A stretch of 41,901 bases of DNA, from the NCBI GenBank assembly GCA_030447905.1, contig JAUJNZ010000003.1, positions 84,478-126,378 on the forward strand, given 5' to 3'. The notes beneath the pieces are model-generated. The model made no database searches. It saw only the letters and a list, made by a program, of their open reading frames with translations, and had not been told where the DNA came from. This DNA comes from Thermoleophilaceae bacterium (GTDB lineage Bacteria; Actinomycetota; Thermoleophilia; Solirubrobacterales; Thermoleophilaceae). Shown here piece by piece: positions 37,345 to 41,901 of the stretch. Position numbers and translations under genes: made by a program. Position 1 is the stretch's first letter. The number at the start of each line of letters is the position of its first letter.

Positions 37345-38232
37345 CTACCAAGGCCGCCGTCCGCCGCCGCGCGCGAGCCCGCTGGCTCGCAGACCCCGCA
37401 GCGTGCGCGCCGCCAGCGCGCCGGCCAGGAGCGCGTGCGAGGCCCGGCGACCCGCTCGCCGACCGCCGCGAGCGCCGCAATCGGTCGAGCGGATCACGCC
37501 ACTACCCGCCCGGGACCCGCCCGGACTCCCACGGTCGCCGACCGCCGCGAGCAGAAGCCCGGTCGCACCGAAAGTCGCGCGAAGCGCCCGCGGGCCGGGC
37601 GCCGCGGGGCGGGCCGAGGCGCCGAGGTAGGTCGCCGCTCCGGCGCCGACCACGACGAGCAGGTGCGCCCGCTCCGCGGCGAGGACCCACGGGTCCAGGG
37701 ACCGTCGCCTGACGAGGCCGCTGACGGCGGCGTGAAAGAAGGAGGCGTCGGCGGCGGAGTCGAGCTCGCGGCCGAGGCGGGTCGGGCCGGCCCTGCGGGC
37801 GAGCAGACCGTCAAGGAGGTCGGTCGCGCTCGCGGCGGCGATCAGCGCGGGGTGAGGCGCACGTCGCGCCAGCGGCGCCATCCAGAGCCTCGCCAGCGAG
37901 AGCGCGTCGGCGGCGCCCAGCGCCCGCGGCTCGGACCCGTCGGTCTCGGCCATGCCGAGGTGCCAGTCGAGCATGGCCCACCATGCCAGCCACCGGATCG
38001 ACGCGCGCGGACCGAGCGCCACCGAGGCGCCGAGCCCGACCGCCCCGAACCGCCGGGACTGGGAGACGAGGTCAGGTCGGCGGGTGCGAACACGCCGGGC
38101 CCGAGCGAGCGACGCGGCAAGGAACTCGACCACGCCCGGCGGGCTGAAGCTCCGCGCGCGCAGAGCGTCCAGGGCTTCTCGGGCCCAGCGCTCACCCTCG
38201 CTGAGCCCGCAGCCGTCATCCGTCGAAATCAC
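37345..38232 (-). CDS. CDP-alcohol phosphatidyltransferase family protein, possible 3' slip
   Basis: GTG 38232: VISTDDGCGLSEGERWAREA, helical SLARARRVRTRRPDLVSQSR, then the CDP-OH-P motif ATDLLDGLLARRAGPTRLGR with ELDSAADASFF (DxxDGxxARxxxxxxxxGxxxDxxxD), and membrane helices DPWVLAAERAHLLVVVGAGA, LRATFGATGLLLAAVGDRG. After ~37540 the frame loses sense (SPGGSRAGSGVIR), likely a one-base slip. Reaction: transfer of a phospho-alcohol from CDP to an alcohol in the membrane. GTG has a GAGGGCG site upstream. Confidence 0.7.
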   Translation of the reverse strand: MISTDDGCGLSEGERWAREALDALRARSFSPPGVVEFLAASLARARRVRTRRPDLVSQSRRFGAVGLGASVALGPRASIRWLAWWAMLDWHLGMAETDGSEPRALGAADALSLARLWMAPLARRAPHPALIAAASATDLLDGLLARRAGPTRLGRELDSAADASFFHAAVSGLVRRRSLDPWVLAAERAHLLVVVGAGAATYLGASARPAAPGPRALRATFGATGLLLAAVGDRGSPGGSRAGSGVIRSTDCGARGGRRAGRRASHALLAGALAARTLRGLRASGLARGGGRRPW

Positions 38233-38299
38233 CGCCCTCGAGCCTGCCGGATCGAGGGCGTCCACGGCGAAAGCCAACCAGACGACGACGCAGGGCGCC

Positions 38300-38632
38300 C
38301 TGTCCCTTGACCCGCTTGGAGACCGACGGGCGGAACTGGACGATGACGCGCCCGTGCTCCAGTGAGTGGACGAGGTTCTCGTTGGCTGCCGCCTCGTCAT
38401 AGGCCCCGTCCTCGGCAGGCACCTGGCTGTGGTTGCCCGAGTGGGGAGGGCTCGATTCATACCGTACGGGCTCCGTCACATGCTGCTGCCCCTCGCTGCG
38501 GAAACTGCGAACCGTGCAGCCGGCGGCGCCAGCTGCCTGGTTGAGATCGCTCACGCGCTGCGGGGGGACCGGTACCTCGGGGAAGGAGGCCGCGCTCGGC
38601 CCTATAGGACCGTCGTCGTCCCCGCAAGACAC
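38300..38632 (-). pseudogene. DUF3105 protein, both ends truncated
   Basis: SFPEVPVPPQRVSDLNQAAG, AAGCTVRSFRSEGQQHVTEP, VRYESSPPHSGNHSQVPAED, GAYDEAAANENLVHSLEHGR, VIVQFRPSVSKRVKGQ. The PPTSGNH and ENLVHSLEHGRVIVQ motifs define DUF3105. The lipoprotein signal is missing (the sense starts at a CGDDD-like residue run directly after the E1 gene stop) and the C-terminal half is replaced after VKGQ. Confidence 0.75.
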
Positions 38633-38642
38633 TCAGACGAGT

Positions 38643-40136
38643 CTAGGACGCCCGCTGGGCGGCGCCTTCCTGCCACCGCGAGCGGTAGTGCGCGCGGTAT
38701 GCGGGGTCCTGACACGTGCAGTCGGTGCGCTTGCGGATGCGGCGCCCCCACCGCTCGTGAGGGCCGGTGAGGATGCTCGTCGCGACCATGTTGGTCCTCG
38801 GCGAGAGCGGAGCCTCTGCCCCCATGCGGCGCTTCACGAGCTCTGCCGCGAGCAGGACACCGGGCGCGGCCGACAACATCGGCGCGCTGACAGCCGGTTC
38901 GTCGGGAAGGGGCCGGAGGCGGCCGCAGGCTGCCCGGGCGACATCGCTGCCGGGCACCCCTCGAAGCTGCTCGCGATTCTCGGCTGCCACGCGACCCAGC
39001 AGCTCGTCGGGAAGCGGCGCACCGCTCCCCAGATGTGGCCGCAGCTCGGCGAGCGGGATGCCGAGGAGCCGGGCGAGGCTCTCGTCCGGCCCGCCGGTGT
39101 GCAGGTCCGCTCGCGCGATGCAGCCGAGACACGCCTCGGTGAGGAAGTCGTGGCTCGTCACCTGGTAGAACCCGGTGTCGCTCGTGCCTCCGTTGAGCGC
39201 GAGCCGCGGCATGTCGAGCTGAAACGCCCGCCGGGCCGCATCCTCGTCGACGGAGACGACGCCCAGTTCGACCGCCGACCGGCGCCCGGGATCGACCGCC
39301 TCCCACCGGACGGGCTGCACCACCGGCGCAGCTCCAGCGGAACGAAGGAGCGCGGCGAGCAGCTCGGCTTTCCCCTCGCCGACGTCCCGGAGCGAGGCGG
39401 TCAGGTGGCGGTTCGGATTCGTGTCGTCGATCGTGTCGTCGTCCACGGCCAGCGGAGCACCTCGGAGGGTGAGCAGTGCGAGCGGCCACGCGATCGCCGA
39501 GGCGACACCGCCGCAGCCGACGAACACGACGCCGTCGAGGTCGACCACCTCGGGGATGCTCATGCCGACGTTGGGCGCGAGCGCGTAGTCCCAGAGCGAG
39601 ACGGCGCCACGCCACGGCCGGCTGCGCGCCGTGGCGCCGCCGGCGGCGACGAGGGCGACCTTAAGCGCCTCGGCCGAGGCGATGGTGCCGGCGAAGACGG
39701 CGGCGATGGGGTTGCCCGCGATGTCCGGCAGCCGCTCGCCGAAGGCGCACGCCCAACCGGCCGTGGCGACGAAGACGCCGTCGTCCTCGCCGTCGAAGAC
39801 GAGGCGGAGTGCCGGATCGGCCGATCGCCCGGTGACGAGGCGGTCGACGGATACGAAGCCCGCGTGCTCGGTGGCGACCTCTTCGACCAGGTTGCCGTCG
39901 CCGAGCCGGGGAAGCCGTGTGGTCCGGGTGGCGGGCACGTCAAGGTGCAGGCGCGGTGCCGCCTCGTCGAGCCGCAGCAGCAGCGTCGCGGTCAGCGCGA
40001 TCGCGATCTCTACCGCGGGGGTCAGCCGCGCGGCCACGATGTCGACTTCGACTCCCGCCATCCGAGCGGCCGCGCCGTCGGGGTCGTCGGTCACCCGGGC
40101 GAGGAAGCGCCGGGTGCGCTCATACGGGCCAGCCAT
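38643..40136 (-). CDS. E1-like ThiF-family ubiquitin-like-activating enzyme
   Basis: 497 residues, ATG 40136 with GGAGGAGG upstream. N-terminal domain (1-~190): YERTRRFLARVTDDPDGAAA, RLTPAVEIAIALTATLLLRL, TGRSADPALRLVFDGEDDGV, AGNPIAAVFAGTIASAEALK - resembles a degenerate (inactive) Rossmann half as in E1s. Active adenylation domain: VDLDGVVFVGCGGVASAIAW (GxGGxxS nucleotide loop), LAVDDDTIDDTNPNRHLTAS (Asp for ATP ribose, NxNR), VGEGKAELLAALLRS. Candidate catalytic Cys VARAACGRLRPLP; Zn-binding-like pairs CLGC and CTCQ at the C-terminus. Adenylates the C-terminus of the ubiquitin-like protein. Its start lies 17 bases inside the JAB gene. Confidence 0.85.
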   Translation of the reverse strand: MAGPYERTRRFLARVTDDPDGAAARMAGVEVDIVAARLTPAVEIAIALTATLLLRLDEAAPRLHLDVPATRTTRLPRLGDGNLVEEVATEHAGFVSVDRLVTGRSADPALRLVFDGEDDGVFVATAGWACAFGERLPDIAGNPIAAVFAGTIASAEALKVALVAAGGATARSRPWRGAVSLWDYALAPNVGMSIPEVVDLDGVVFVGCGGVASAIAWPLALLTLRGAPLAVDDDTIDDTNPNRHLTASLRDVGEGKAELLAALLRSAGAAPVVQPVRWEAVDPGRRSAVELGVVSVDEDAARRAFQLDMPRLALNGGTSDTGFYQVTSHDFLTEACLGCIARADLHTGGPDESLARLLGIPLAELRPHLGSGAPLPDELLGRVAAENREQLRGVPGSDVARAACGRLRPLPDEPAVSAPMLSAAPGVLLAAELVKRRMGAEAPLSPRTNMVATSILTGPHERWGRRIRKRTDCTCQDPAYRAHYRSRWQEGAAQRAS

Positions 40137-40626
40137 CCACCCTCCTCCGTGGCTCGACCTCGCGCCATTCGCCAGTGCGCGCCTCGTAGAAGCGCCACCC
40201 GGTTCCCGCCCCCTGGGTCGCGAAGTCGGGGATGACGACAGCGTAAAAGCCGTCGCGCTGGCTGAACGGCCGCGCGCGATCCGGCTCGGACAGGAACGCC
40301 CGGCGCGGGTGCGTGTGGAGGTCGGCGAAGGCGAGGAGACGCTCAGTCCGGAGGTAGTCCGCGATCGCGATCCGTTCGTCCTTCGGGATAGTGAGGAGGT
40401 CGCGCCGGCTCCGGAACGCCGGCAGCAGGAGGTGGGACACGAGCGCGGCCGAGCCAGCGAGCGGACGGCCCGCCCATAGCACCGTCGACTCCCTCCGGCC
40501 CGCGCTCCCGTCGCAGAGCGCCGTCTGGGTCGCCTCGAGCAGACCATCGGCGAGGCGCAGGTGTATCGGCGGCCCCGGTCGCTCCCCCGCTGCCGGGAGT
40601 CCGTCGGTGAAGCTGTGGACCTCCAT
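40120..40626 (-). CDS. JAB/MPN-domain isopeptidase (deubiquitinase-like)
   Basis: 168 residues, ATG 40626 with GGGGAG upstream; the ATG overlaps the E2 gene stop (TGATG). RRESTVLWAGRPLAG carries the JAMM Glu, and LAFADLHTHPRRAFLSEPDR gives HxHPx6SxxD: all zinc ligands of a JAMM protease. Flanking strands FYAVVIPDFATQGAGTGWRF fit the MPN fold. Expected to cleave the ubiquitin-like protein after its terminal Gly, to process it and to remove it from targets. Translationally coupled to both neighbours. Confidence 0.85.
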   Translation of the reverse strand: MEVHSFTDGLPAAGERPGPPIHLRLADGLLEATQTALCDGSAGRRESTVLWAGRPLAGSAALVSHLLLPAFRSRRDLLTIPKDERIAIADYLRTERLLAFADLHTHPRRAFLSEPDRARPFSQRDGFYAVVIPDFATQGAGTGWRFYEARTGEWREVEPRRRVDGWPV

Positions 40627-41075
40627 CACACTCCCCGCCCGCGGTAGGGACCCATGCGGAGGAAACGCGAGAGCAAGGCCGCGACGACGGGCAGGCGCCA
40701 CCGCTCCCTGGGGTGCTGCTCAGCGAGGTGGCTCGGGTGGAGGTGGTAGCCGCGCGTGCCCGGCGTGCAGATGATCGGCAACTGGCGGCCGTCCCAGGCG
40801 ACCGAGTTCATCGGGGCGCCCTCGATCCGGGGCCAGTGCGCCGCGCCGAGTGCAGGCGGAGCGGCGGGGTCGGCGAAGTCGAGGACTGGCGCCTGGGCGT
40901 CGTAGCCGTCGCACAAAAGCACCGCGAGGTAGCTCTCCTCCGTGCCGGGTGGCCGGGCCGGGATGTCGATTCGGGTGCCCTGGCGCGCCGGCTCGCCGAG
41001 ACCGAGGCGCCGCACCTGCTCGAGGAACGGCGCCCAGTCCCGGTCGATCAGCGCGTTGGCAAGGGCGTCGTCCAC
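40626..41075 (-). CDS. E2-like conjugating enzyme (prokaryotic E2 group)
   Basis: 149 residues, GTG 41075 immediately after the ubiquitin-like gene stop (TAG-GTG). Helix DRDWAPFLEQVRRLGLGEPA, strands GTEESYLAVLLCDGYDAQAP, VLDFADP (the E2 Y..aP.l.F layout), WDGRQLPIICTPGTRGYHLH (likely active Cys at residue 103 in ICTPGTRGYHLHPSH) and helix RWRLPVVAALLSRFLRM. The eukaryotic HPN triplet is replaced by this Cys-Thr-Pro...His-x-His arrangement. Assigned as E2 by fold pattern and operon place; a metal-binding role for the His residues cannot be excluded. Confidence 0.65.
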   Translation of the reverse strand: MDDALANALIDRDWAPFLEQVRRLGLGEPARQGTRIDIPARPPGTEESYLAVLLCDGYDAQAPVLDFADPAAPPALGAAHWPRIEGAPMNSVAWDGRQLPIICTPGTRGYHLHPSHLAEQHPRERWRLPVVAALLSRFLRMGPYRGRGV

Positions 41076-41351
41076 CTAGCCGCGGCTGACGTCCTTGGGC
41101 AGGATCAGCACCTCGGAGTGGTCGTGCAGGCCGGCCTGCGCCAGCGTGCGCCCGAGGTCGTCCTGCACCGTCCCGTCGATGAGGATGTCGTACTGATCGG
41201 GGTCGGCGTGGTCCCCGACGAGCTTCCGTACCCCGAGGCGCAGGAGCTGGTGGAGGTGGGCGTGCTCGTTCTCCGTGATGTTCGCGGTGTCGCCCTCCTG
41301 GTCGGCGACGACGATCGTCCAGCGGTGCTTATCGGTGGCTGTCTGGGTCAT
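41076..41351 (-). CDS. Ubiquitin-like beta-grasp protein
   Basis: 91 residues, ATG 41351 with GGAGGT 5 bases upstream. KHRWTIVVADQEGDTANITE (first hairpin), NEHAHLHQLLRLGVRKLVGD (helix), DQYDILIDGTVQDDLGRTLA, QAGLHDHSEVLILPKDVSRG. Strand-strand-helix-strand-strand is the ubiquitin fold, and the protein ends in an exposed tail VSRG with a C-terminal Gly, ready for activation without trimming. First gene of the operon UBL-E2-JAB-E1. Single domain, unlike the multi-domain 'multiubiquitin' types. Confidence 0.8.
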   Translation of the reverse strand: MTQTATDKHRWTIVVADQEGDTANITENEHAHLHQLLRLGVRKLVGDHADPDQYDILIDGTVQDDLGRTLAQAGLHDHSEVLILPKDVSRG

Positions 41352-41395
41352 CCGGCACCTCCGAGGGCCGATATCGAGTGCAGCGTGCGCGGTAC

Positions 41396-41401
41396 ACTAT
41401 A
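41396..41401 (-). promoter_or_regulatory. Possible -10 box of the ubiquitin-like operon
   Basis: On the leftward strand TATAGT lies 45 bases before the ATG at 41351, within the 143 bp divergent intergenic region. A weak AATCAA lies 16 bases further upstream; no strong -35. The adjoining GGTACACTATAG region could also hold the XRE operator. By eye only. Confidence 0.3.
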
Positions 41402-41494
41402 GCCTGTCGGCCGGCATTTGATTGGATACCACCCCGCCGGGCCCCTCCAGACGCCCGCGGGGTGAACCACCGGCCACCACGGTATGCTTGCGCC

Positions 41495-41901
41495 GTGTCG
41501 GACGAGATGCGCCGCGTCGGGGATAGGATTCGCCGCGAACGCGAGAAGGCGGGGCTCTCGCTTTCCCAGCTAGCCGACGCGGCCGGACTCTCGAAAGCAT
41601 ACGTTCTGAAGGTGGAGAACGGCGGGACGAACCCGTCGCTCGGGGTGCTCGGGCAGATCGCCGACGGCCTCGACGTCACCATCGCCGACCTCGTCGGAGG
41701 CGCCGCCGTCCGGTTCGACCTCGATGACGCCGATATCCCGTCGTCACTGCGGGCGTTCGCCGACGAGGCGGACCTGACGTCGGCCGAGGTGAGCACGCTC
41801 GCGAGCATCCGCTGGCGGCGCGGGGAGGAGCCGCGAACGCCGGAGCGCTGGCGCTACATCTTCGATTCCCTCCGGCTCAGCCGCTCGATGGATGCCGAGG
41901 A
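41495..41901 (+). CDS. XRE-family regulator, divergent from the ubiquitin-like operon (runs off window)
   Basis: GTG 41495 (or ATG 41507, same frame). MRRVGDRIRREREKAGLSLS, QLADAAGLSKAYVLKVENGG, TNPSLGVLGQIADGLDVTIA form a classical Cro/CI HTH. Then a linker and DLTSAEVSTLASIRWRRGEE, PRTPERWRYIFDSLRLSRSM to the window edge. The PxTPExWRYxxxxLR tail is usual in regulators whose genes neighbour M78 (ImmA/IrrE) metallopeptidases, so the next gene to the right is worth seeing. Likely controls itself and the operon on the left. Confidence 0.8.
   Translation, partial: MSDEMRRVGDRIRREREKAGLSLSQLADAAGLSKAYVLKVENGGTNPSLGVLGQIADGLDVTIADLVGGAAVRFDLDDADIPSSLRAFADEADLTSAEVSTLASIRWRRGEEPRTPERWRYIFDSLRLSRSMDAE

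What the first reader, a model, noticed from the sequence alone, without database searches (positions are those of the whole stretch)
38643..41901. Compact bacterial ubiquitin-like conjugation operon (UBL, E2, JAB, E1) with divergent XRE regulator
Four intact genes read leftward with TAG-GTG, TGATG and 17-base-overlap couplings. They encode a single-domain ubiquitin-like protein ending in ...VSRG, an E2-like protein with one candidate catalytic Cys, a JAMM isopeptidase with all zinc ligands, and an E1 with the GxGGxxS adenylation loop. This is a complete activate-conjugate-remove pathway. Related operons (described in comparative work on prokaryotic ubiquitin-like systems; Bil/Bub anti-phage systems) have the same parts. 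Whether this particular family with its unusual E2 and single-Gly UBL is already described cannot be told from the sequence. The XRE partner suggests regulation as in defence or stress islands.
Basis: partly seen in the sequence, partly recalled or inferred. Interest (0 to 1): 0.92.

Follow-up and report, generated by a model that had tools for sequence, protein, structure and literature searches.

The report
Divergent bacterial ubiquitin-conjugation (Bil) operon
An actinobacterium carries a compact four-gene set that is predicted to tag proteins with a ubiquitin-like protein, a distant member of the known BilABCD anti-phage system, placed beside a repressor/protease pair of the kind that switches defence operons on after DNA damage.

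Summary
The four genes are real and correctly described. They are a divergent BilABCD operon: UBL (BilA-like), E2 (BilB-like), JAMM deubiquitinase (BilC-like), E1 (BilD-like), in the same order as nine relatives. The E1 matches solved BilD along most of its length (8tyz_A, E=1.3e-18) and the JAB matches BilC. Profiles built without the window still pick out each of the four genes among 543 window frames. Catalytic residues align: E1 C404 = BilD C417, E2 C103/H116 = BilB C138/H151, JAMM E46/H104/H106/S113/D116. The UBL model is beta-grasp (pLDDT 87). The E2 has lost the Glu of the CEHH motif and is about 50 residues shorter than most relatives. The divergent XRE gene is followed, just beyond the window, by an M78 peptidase: a CapH+CapP-like pair, as known beside CBASS and Bub operons. 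It is a new, divergent member of a known kind (15-30% identity, no closer relative found), not a new kind. Conjugation and anti-phage function are inferred, not shown.

The parts
41076..41351 (-). BilA-like single-domain ubiquitin-like protein, 91 aa; C-terminal Gly91 already exposed (...DVSRG)
   Evidence: profile of relatives E=1.4e-4 vs 543 frames; AlphaFold2 pLDDT 87, Foldseek E about 1e-6 to ubiquitin/NEDD8 and 8e-6 to BilA 8tyx_A; best Z 12.5
40626..41075 (-). BilB-like E2, 149 aa, GTG start; catalytic C103 (codon 40769-40767), H111, H116; Glu of the CEHH motif is Gly109
   Evidence: PADLOC BilB 2.3e-4; family profile hits 8tyz_C E2(BilB) 1.8e-68; residue roles from PMC11354881
40120..40626 (-). 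BilC-like JAMM isopeptidase, 168 aa; E46, H104, H106, S113, D116
   Evidence: PADLOC BilC 4e-11; PDB 8tyx_B DUB(BilC) 2.4e-4; invariants
38643..40136 (-). BilD-like E1, 497 aa; N-terminal part corresponding to the inactive adenylation domain, ATP loop G207-x-G209, D232, N240, R243, K256, D297, catalytic C404 (codon 38927-38925), presumed zinc Cys C336/C339/C473/C475
   Evidence: PDB 8tyz_A E1(BilD) 1.3e-18 over 46-492; PADLOC BilD 4e-10; Pfam ThiF 2e-7; invariants
41495..41901 (+). divergent XRE/CapH-like repressor gene, cut by the window end; the next gene beyond the window (L006:6481-7347) is a CapP-like M78 peptidase
   Evidence: HTH_3 2e-15, PADLOC capH 3e-12; Peptidase_M78 4e-12, capP 3e-24
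41352..41494 (.). 143-bp divergent intergenic region, presumed promoter/operator of both units; no sigma-70 consensus found

Best explanation
A divergent BilABCD ubiquitination pathway under CapH+CapP-type control. The E1 (BilD-like) adenylates the UBL C-terminal Gly91, takes it as a thioester on C404, and hands it to C103 of the BilB-like E2, which conjugates it to lysines of target proteins, helped by H116. The JAMM enzyme removes the UBL from targets; it need not trim the precursor, because Gly91 is already terminal. The XRE repressor keeps the operon off until the neighbouring M78 peptidase, activated by single-stranded DNA, cleaves it, so the pathway is induced by DNA damage or phage infection. 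Shown here: gene content, order, family, predicted fold of the UBL, conservation of catalytic residues, and the regulator pair. Inferred: catalysis, conjugation to targets, induction, and anti-phage action.
For: E1 matches solved BilD (8tyz_A) at 1.3e-18 over residues 46-492, with C404 aligned to C417, the published catalytic Cys of BilD (PMC11354881). JAB matches solved BilC. The E2 and UBL families match solved BilB and BilA by profile. Leave-one-out profile test. Invariant catalytic residues. UBL fold. The same UBL-E2-JAB-E1 order is found in R. etli p42a, Mesorhizobium, R. leguminosarum pRLN3, Rubellimicrobium, a Solirubrobacteraceae MAG and genomes G583, G064, G341 and G775. CapH and CapP hits. 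Related operons also have XRE-ImmA fusions (L036 divergent, L028 downstream) or a divergent WYL regulator (L033) beside them. The CapH+CapP mechanism, its link to Bub operons, and its control of adjacent immune operons are reported in PMC13373217.
Against: Identity to known members is only 15-30%. The E2 lacks the CEHH Glu (Gly109), and its fold could not be confirmed (AlphaFold2 pLDDT 47; BilB 8tz0_C is the best Foldseek hit but only at E=0.29). No closer relative was found, so conservation within this lineage cannot be tested. The phage-defence role rests on analogy.
Confidence: 0.83

Rival explanations
1. Sulfur-carrier system: the E1 activates the UBL as a thiocarboxylate, as MoeB/MoaD or ThiF/ThiS do, for cofactor or amino-acid synthesis.
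For: The adenylation domain also matches ThiF and MoeB families weakly.
Against: Best match by far is BilD, including the CYS-domain cysteine; an E2 and a JAMM gene are in the operon; relatives sit in UBL/E2/JAB operons and no sulfur-metabolism gene adjoins.
Confidence: 0.04
2. The pathway conjugates the UBL for a general DNA-damage or stress response instead of phage defence.
For: CapH+CapP-type regulators sense ssDNA from any damage; PMC13373217 notes that Bub operons with such regulators have not been shown to protect against phage and may mediate stress responses.
Against: Related Bil operons sit with defence-type neighbours: type IIG R-M-like and PDC-S28 in L036, a PDC-S70-like gene in L028, TIR and caspase genes in R. 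etli p42a. Bil itself is a reported anti-phage system.
Confidence: 0.25
3. The E2 is degenerate, lacking the CEHH Glu and the C-terminal tail, so the E1 activates the UBL but transfer is lost or the E2 is only a scaffold.
For: Gly109 replaces a Glu conserved in the other eight. An E2-less UBL-JAB-E1 cluster exists in the same order, so related pathways can do without an E2.
Against: C103, R108, H111 and H116 are all kept; Glu144 of BilB is reported as structural, not catalytic (PMC11354881); the 145-aa E2 of L012 is equally short.
Confidence: 0.1
4. It belongs to the Bub family instead of Bil.
For: Bub operons also pair with CapH+CapP.
Against: The best matches among solved structures and PADLOC models are Bil components and the gene order is that of Bil. 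No Bub model was available, so this was not tested directly.
Confidence: 0.05

Closest known systems
BilABCD (Bil; structures 8tyx, 8tyy, 8tyz, 8tz0)
   Same: Four genes, same order, same families by sequence, same catalytic Cys in E1 and E2, JAMM ligands and BilC spacing (HxH-x6-S-x2-D), single-domain UBL
   Different: 15-30% identity; E2 lacks the CEHH Glu and about 50 C-terminal residues; UBL ends ...SRG with no residue to trim; Pfam's DUF2604, Metal_CEHH and Prok-E2_C models, which find the relatives, miss these proteins
Rhizobial BilABCD-type operons (R. etli p42a, Mesorhizobium), annotated DUF2604 / putative metal-binding / Mov34 / E2 ligase fold family C; probably row 6c of Iyer et al. 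2006 (PMC1779556)
   Same: Same gene set and order
   Different: Plasmid-borne; no XRE+ImmA pair among the neighbours listed; p42a has TIR and caspase neighbours
Multi-ubiquitin Bil variant (R. leguminosarum pRLN3, L012; compare 8u38 Methylobacterium BilA)
   Same: Same order; short E2 (145 aa) like the window
   Different: UBL is 235 aa, annotated as a multiubiquitin-domain protein
CapH+CapP regulators of CBASS and other immune operons
   Same: XRE repressor gene followed by M78 peptidase gene, divergent from the operon
   Different: Beside a Bil operon in the window; in L036 and L028 the two are one fused protein

Membership tests
BilABCD | Four adjacent genes UBL-E2-DUB-E1 | tested here: met
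   same order in nine relatives
BilABCD | E1 homologous to BilD, with N-terminal part and CYS-domain cysteine | tested here: met
   8tyz_A 1.3e-18, C404 aligned with C417; C404 invariant
BilABCD | E2 homologous to BilB with catalytic Cys and His | tested here: met
   leave-one-out profile E 1.7e-6, PADLOC BilB 2.3e-4, C103 and H116
BilABCD | Complete CEHH motif in the E2 | tested here: not met
   Glu is Gly109 in the window; a structural, non-catalytic position according to PMC11354881. Taken as a variation and not as an exclusion, since it is not a criterion of the operon type
BilABCD | JAMM deubiquitinase homologous to BilC | tested here: met
BilABCD | Beta-grasp UBL with C-terminal Gly | tested here: met
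BilABCD | Conjugates UBL to lysines and protects from phage | not testable with these tools
   needs biochemistry and phage challenge
CapH+CapP | XRE repressor plus adjacent M78 (ImmA/IrrE) peptidase with HExxH | tested here: met
   capH 3e-12, capP 3e-24, HELMH in L006
CapH+CapP | ssDNA-activated cleavage of the repressor | not testable with these tools
   biochemical
MoeB/ThiF sulfur-carrier system | E1 nearest to MoeB/ThiF and in a cofactor-synthesis context | tested here: not met
   BilD is the best hit; E2 and JAMM genes in the operon
Bub | Homology to Bub E1/E2/UBL | not tested
   no Bub profile available; papers with the definitions were not held

The most novel reading that the evidence does not exclude
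The operon represents a separate, deep Bil lineage (outside the clade of all other single-UBL operons, 100/100 on the E1 tree but with a long branch) whose E2 works without the CEHH Glu and without the C-terminal tail, and whose UBL needs no maturation, so that the JAMM enzyme serves only deconjugation, all under CapH+CapP control.
Probability: 0.35. Interest if true: 0.5.

Novelty: new member of a known kind. Interest (0 to 1): 0.42.

Why it matters
Bil is a bacterial pathway with the full E1-E2-UBL-deubiquitinase logic of eukaryotic ubiquitination. A far-diverged copy in a Solirubrobacterales-type actinobacterium widens the known sequence range. It suggests which residues are indispensable (E1 and E2 Cys, E2 His, JAMM ligands) and which may not be (the CEHH Glu, the E2 tail). 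It also shows that the family can escape the Pfam models. The CapH+CapP-like pair suggests that Bil, like CBASS and Bub, can be wired to DNA-damage sensing.

Tried and rejected
Sulfur-carrier reading: rejected because BilD is the best E1 match and E2 and JAMM genes are present. Close relatives: none in genome contigs (single-protein query), viral contigs, phages or the other 30 family genomes. Foldseek on the E2 model: pLDDT 47, best hit BilB 8tz0_C but at E=0.29, not counted as evidence. Promoter scan of the intergenic region: nothing; the small inverted repeats there were not tested against chance. Synteny of the flanks in family members: the radical-SAM neighbour is found but the surroundings differ, so the site is variable, but no clean empty site was seen. 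The Bil and Bub structure papers were not held in the library, so details rest on a review (PMC11354881) and PMC13373217. The related-loci search with the 8-sequence E1 alignment failed for lack of conserved stretches.
Full report
WHAT IS THERE. The four minus-strand genes exist exactly as described: UBL 41351-41076, E2-like 41075-40626, JAB 40626-40120, E1 40136-38643, with TAG-GTG, TGATG and 17-base-overlap couplings. Third-position GC of 0.86-0.96 supports coding. The window is part of a 379,786-base contig of a 2.58-Mb genome. One relative in the same order is a named Solirubrobacteraceae MAG, so the host is in that order, probably Solirubrobacterales (inference).

FAMILY ASSIGNMENT. Pfam sees only ThiF in the E1 above its cut-off. 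PADLOC gives BilB 2.3e-4, BilC 4e-11 and BilD 3.7e-10. Against solved structures, the E1 matches BilD 8tyz_A at 1.3e-18 over residues 46-492 and the JAB matches BilC 8tyx_B at 2.4e-4. Relatives were gathered from the same order, class and phylum, a Rubellimicrobium genome and rhizobial plasmids. Nine of them have UBL, E2, JAB and E1 in this order. Profiles of the E2 and UBL families hit BilB (1.8e-68) and BilA (3.5e-37); their Pfam families are Metal_CEHH and DUF2604, neither of which detects the window proteins. To avoid circularity, profiles were built without the window and run against all 543 window frames and their reversals: each of the four genes came first, with E 1.4e-4 (UBL), 1.7e-6 (E2), 1.2e-17 (JAB) and 3.3e-49 (E1), while the next hits were at 0.33 or more.

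ACTIVE SITES. E1: G207, G209, D232, N240, R243, K256 and D297, C336/C339/C473/C475 (a zinc site by analogy) and C404 are invariant in eight E1s. C404 aligns with C417 of BilD, the residue reported to carry the BilA thioester (PMC11354881). E2: C103, R108, H111 and H116 are invariant. C103, H111 and H116 correspond in spacing to C138, H146 and H151 of BilB; the CEHH Glu144, reported as structural, is Gly109 here. The E2 is 149 aa against 182-232 in most relatives, but the multi-ubiquitin relative L012 has 145 aa. JAB: E46, H104, H106, S113 and D116 are invariant; BilC was crystallised as the E33A mutant, which fits E46 as the catalytic Glu. UBL: terminal Gly91 aligns with the functional Gly of all relatives. 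Of the other six UBLs in that alignment three end in this Gly and three carry one more residue, so a single exposed Gly is ordinary.

FOLD. The UBL model (pLDDT 87.3) is beta-grasp and matches ubiquitin, NEDD8 and SUMO (Foldseek E about 2e-6 to 1e-5, TM 0.66-0.75) and BilA 8tyx_A (8.3e-6, TM 0.74); the best VIA-align Z is 12.5, rmsd 1.8 over 79 residues. The E2 model has low confidence (pLDDT 47). Its best Foldseek hit is BilB 8tz0_C, but at E=0.29, so it is not counted.

REGULATION. The divergent XRE gene starts at 41495 and runs off the window. In the contig it is followed, after a 100-N gap, by an M78 peptidase with HELMH. PADLOC names them capH (3e-12) and capP (3e-24). The operon of G583 has a divergent XRE-ImmA fusion, that of G064 has one downstream, and that of Rubellimicrobium has a divergent WYL regulator. 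PMC13373217 states that CapP is activated by ssDNA and cleaves CapH, that CapW/BrxR and CapH+CapP control adjacent immune operons, and that 219 of 544 Bub operons carry one or the other. Induction by DNA damage is therefore the likely switch here, by inference.

POSITION IN THE FAMILY. On the E1 tree the window lies outside the group of the seven other single-UBL operons (100/100) and apart from the multi-ubiquitin pair, but on a branch of 2.2 changes per site; the program warns that long branches meet, so the placement is unsure. Within the family of the host, none of the 30 other genomes has the E1 and flanks are not syntenic, consistent with an accessory locus.

CONCLUSION. A divergent BilABCD operon with a CapH+CapP-like switch. 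It is a new member of a known kind: its defence role is by analogy, its conjugation activity is strongly suggested by conserved residues but not shown, and the E2 is the least secure component.

Noticed in passing
L030:4597-6658 (G213); also L043, L046, L049 (G002, same genus as the window), L050 (G015): A UBL-JAB-E1 cluster with no E2 gene detected, in several genomes of the same order (in L049 only JAB and E1 were recognised). The UBLs end in GG, in one case followed by three residues; the E1s appear to lack the CYS-domain cysteine. It may be an E2-free UBL system; Pfam and NCBIfam name only its ThiF and JAB domains.
   Followed up: partly
L007:12757-16179 (minus): A 1140-aa fusion Prok-E2_A + ThiF + Prok-JAB + patatin close to the Bil operon of the Solirubrobacteraceae MAG.
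   Followed up: partly
L010:7635-8993 (R. etli p42a): TIR (ThsB-like) and caspase-domain genes follow the BilABCD-type operon.
   Followed up: partly
window 38216-38632 (minus): DUF3105 gene directly downstream of the E1 matches only positions 1-60 of 130 of the Pfam model, so it looks truncated or frameshifted.
   Followed up: no
L006:8526-12064 (beyond the window): IS1595-type transposase zinc ribbon, a partial UvrD-like helicase and overlapping P-type ATPase-like frames downstream of the CapP-like gene; looks like a rearranged region.
   Followed up: no
L036:3821-5578 and L028:9832-11471: XRE-ImmA fusion paired with a small neighbouring gene (PDC-S70-like in L028, similar-looking but unmatched in L036) beside two Bil operons.
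   Followed up: partly
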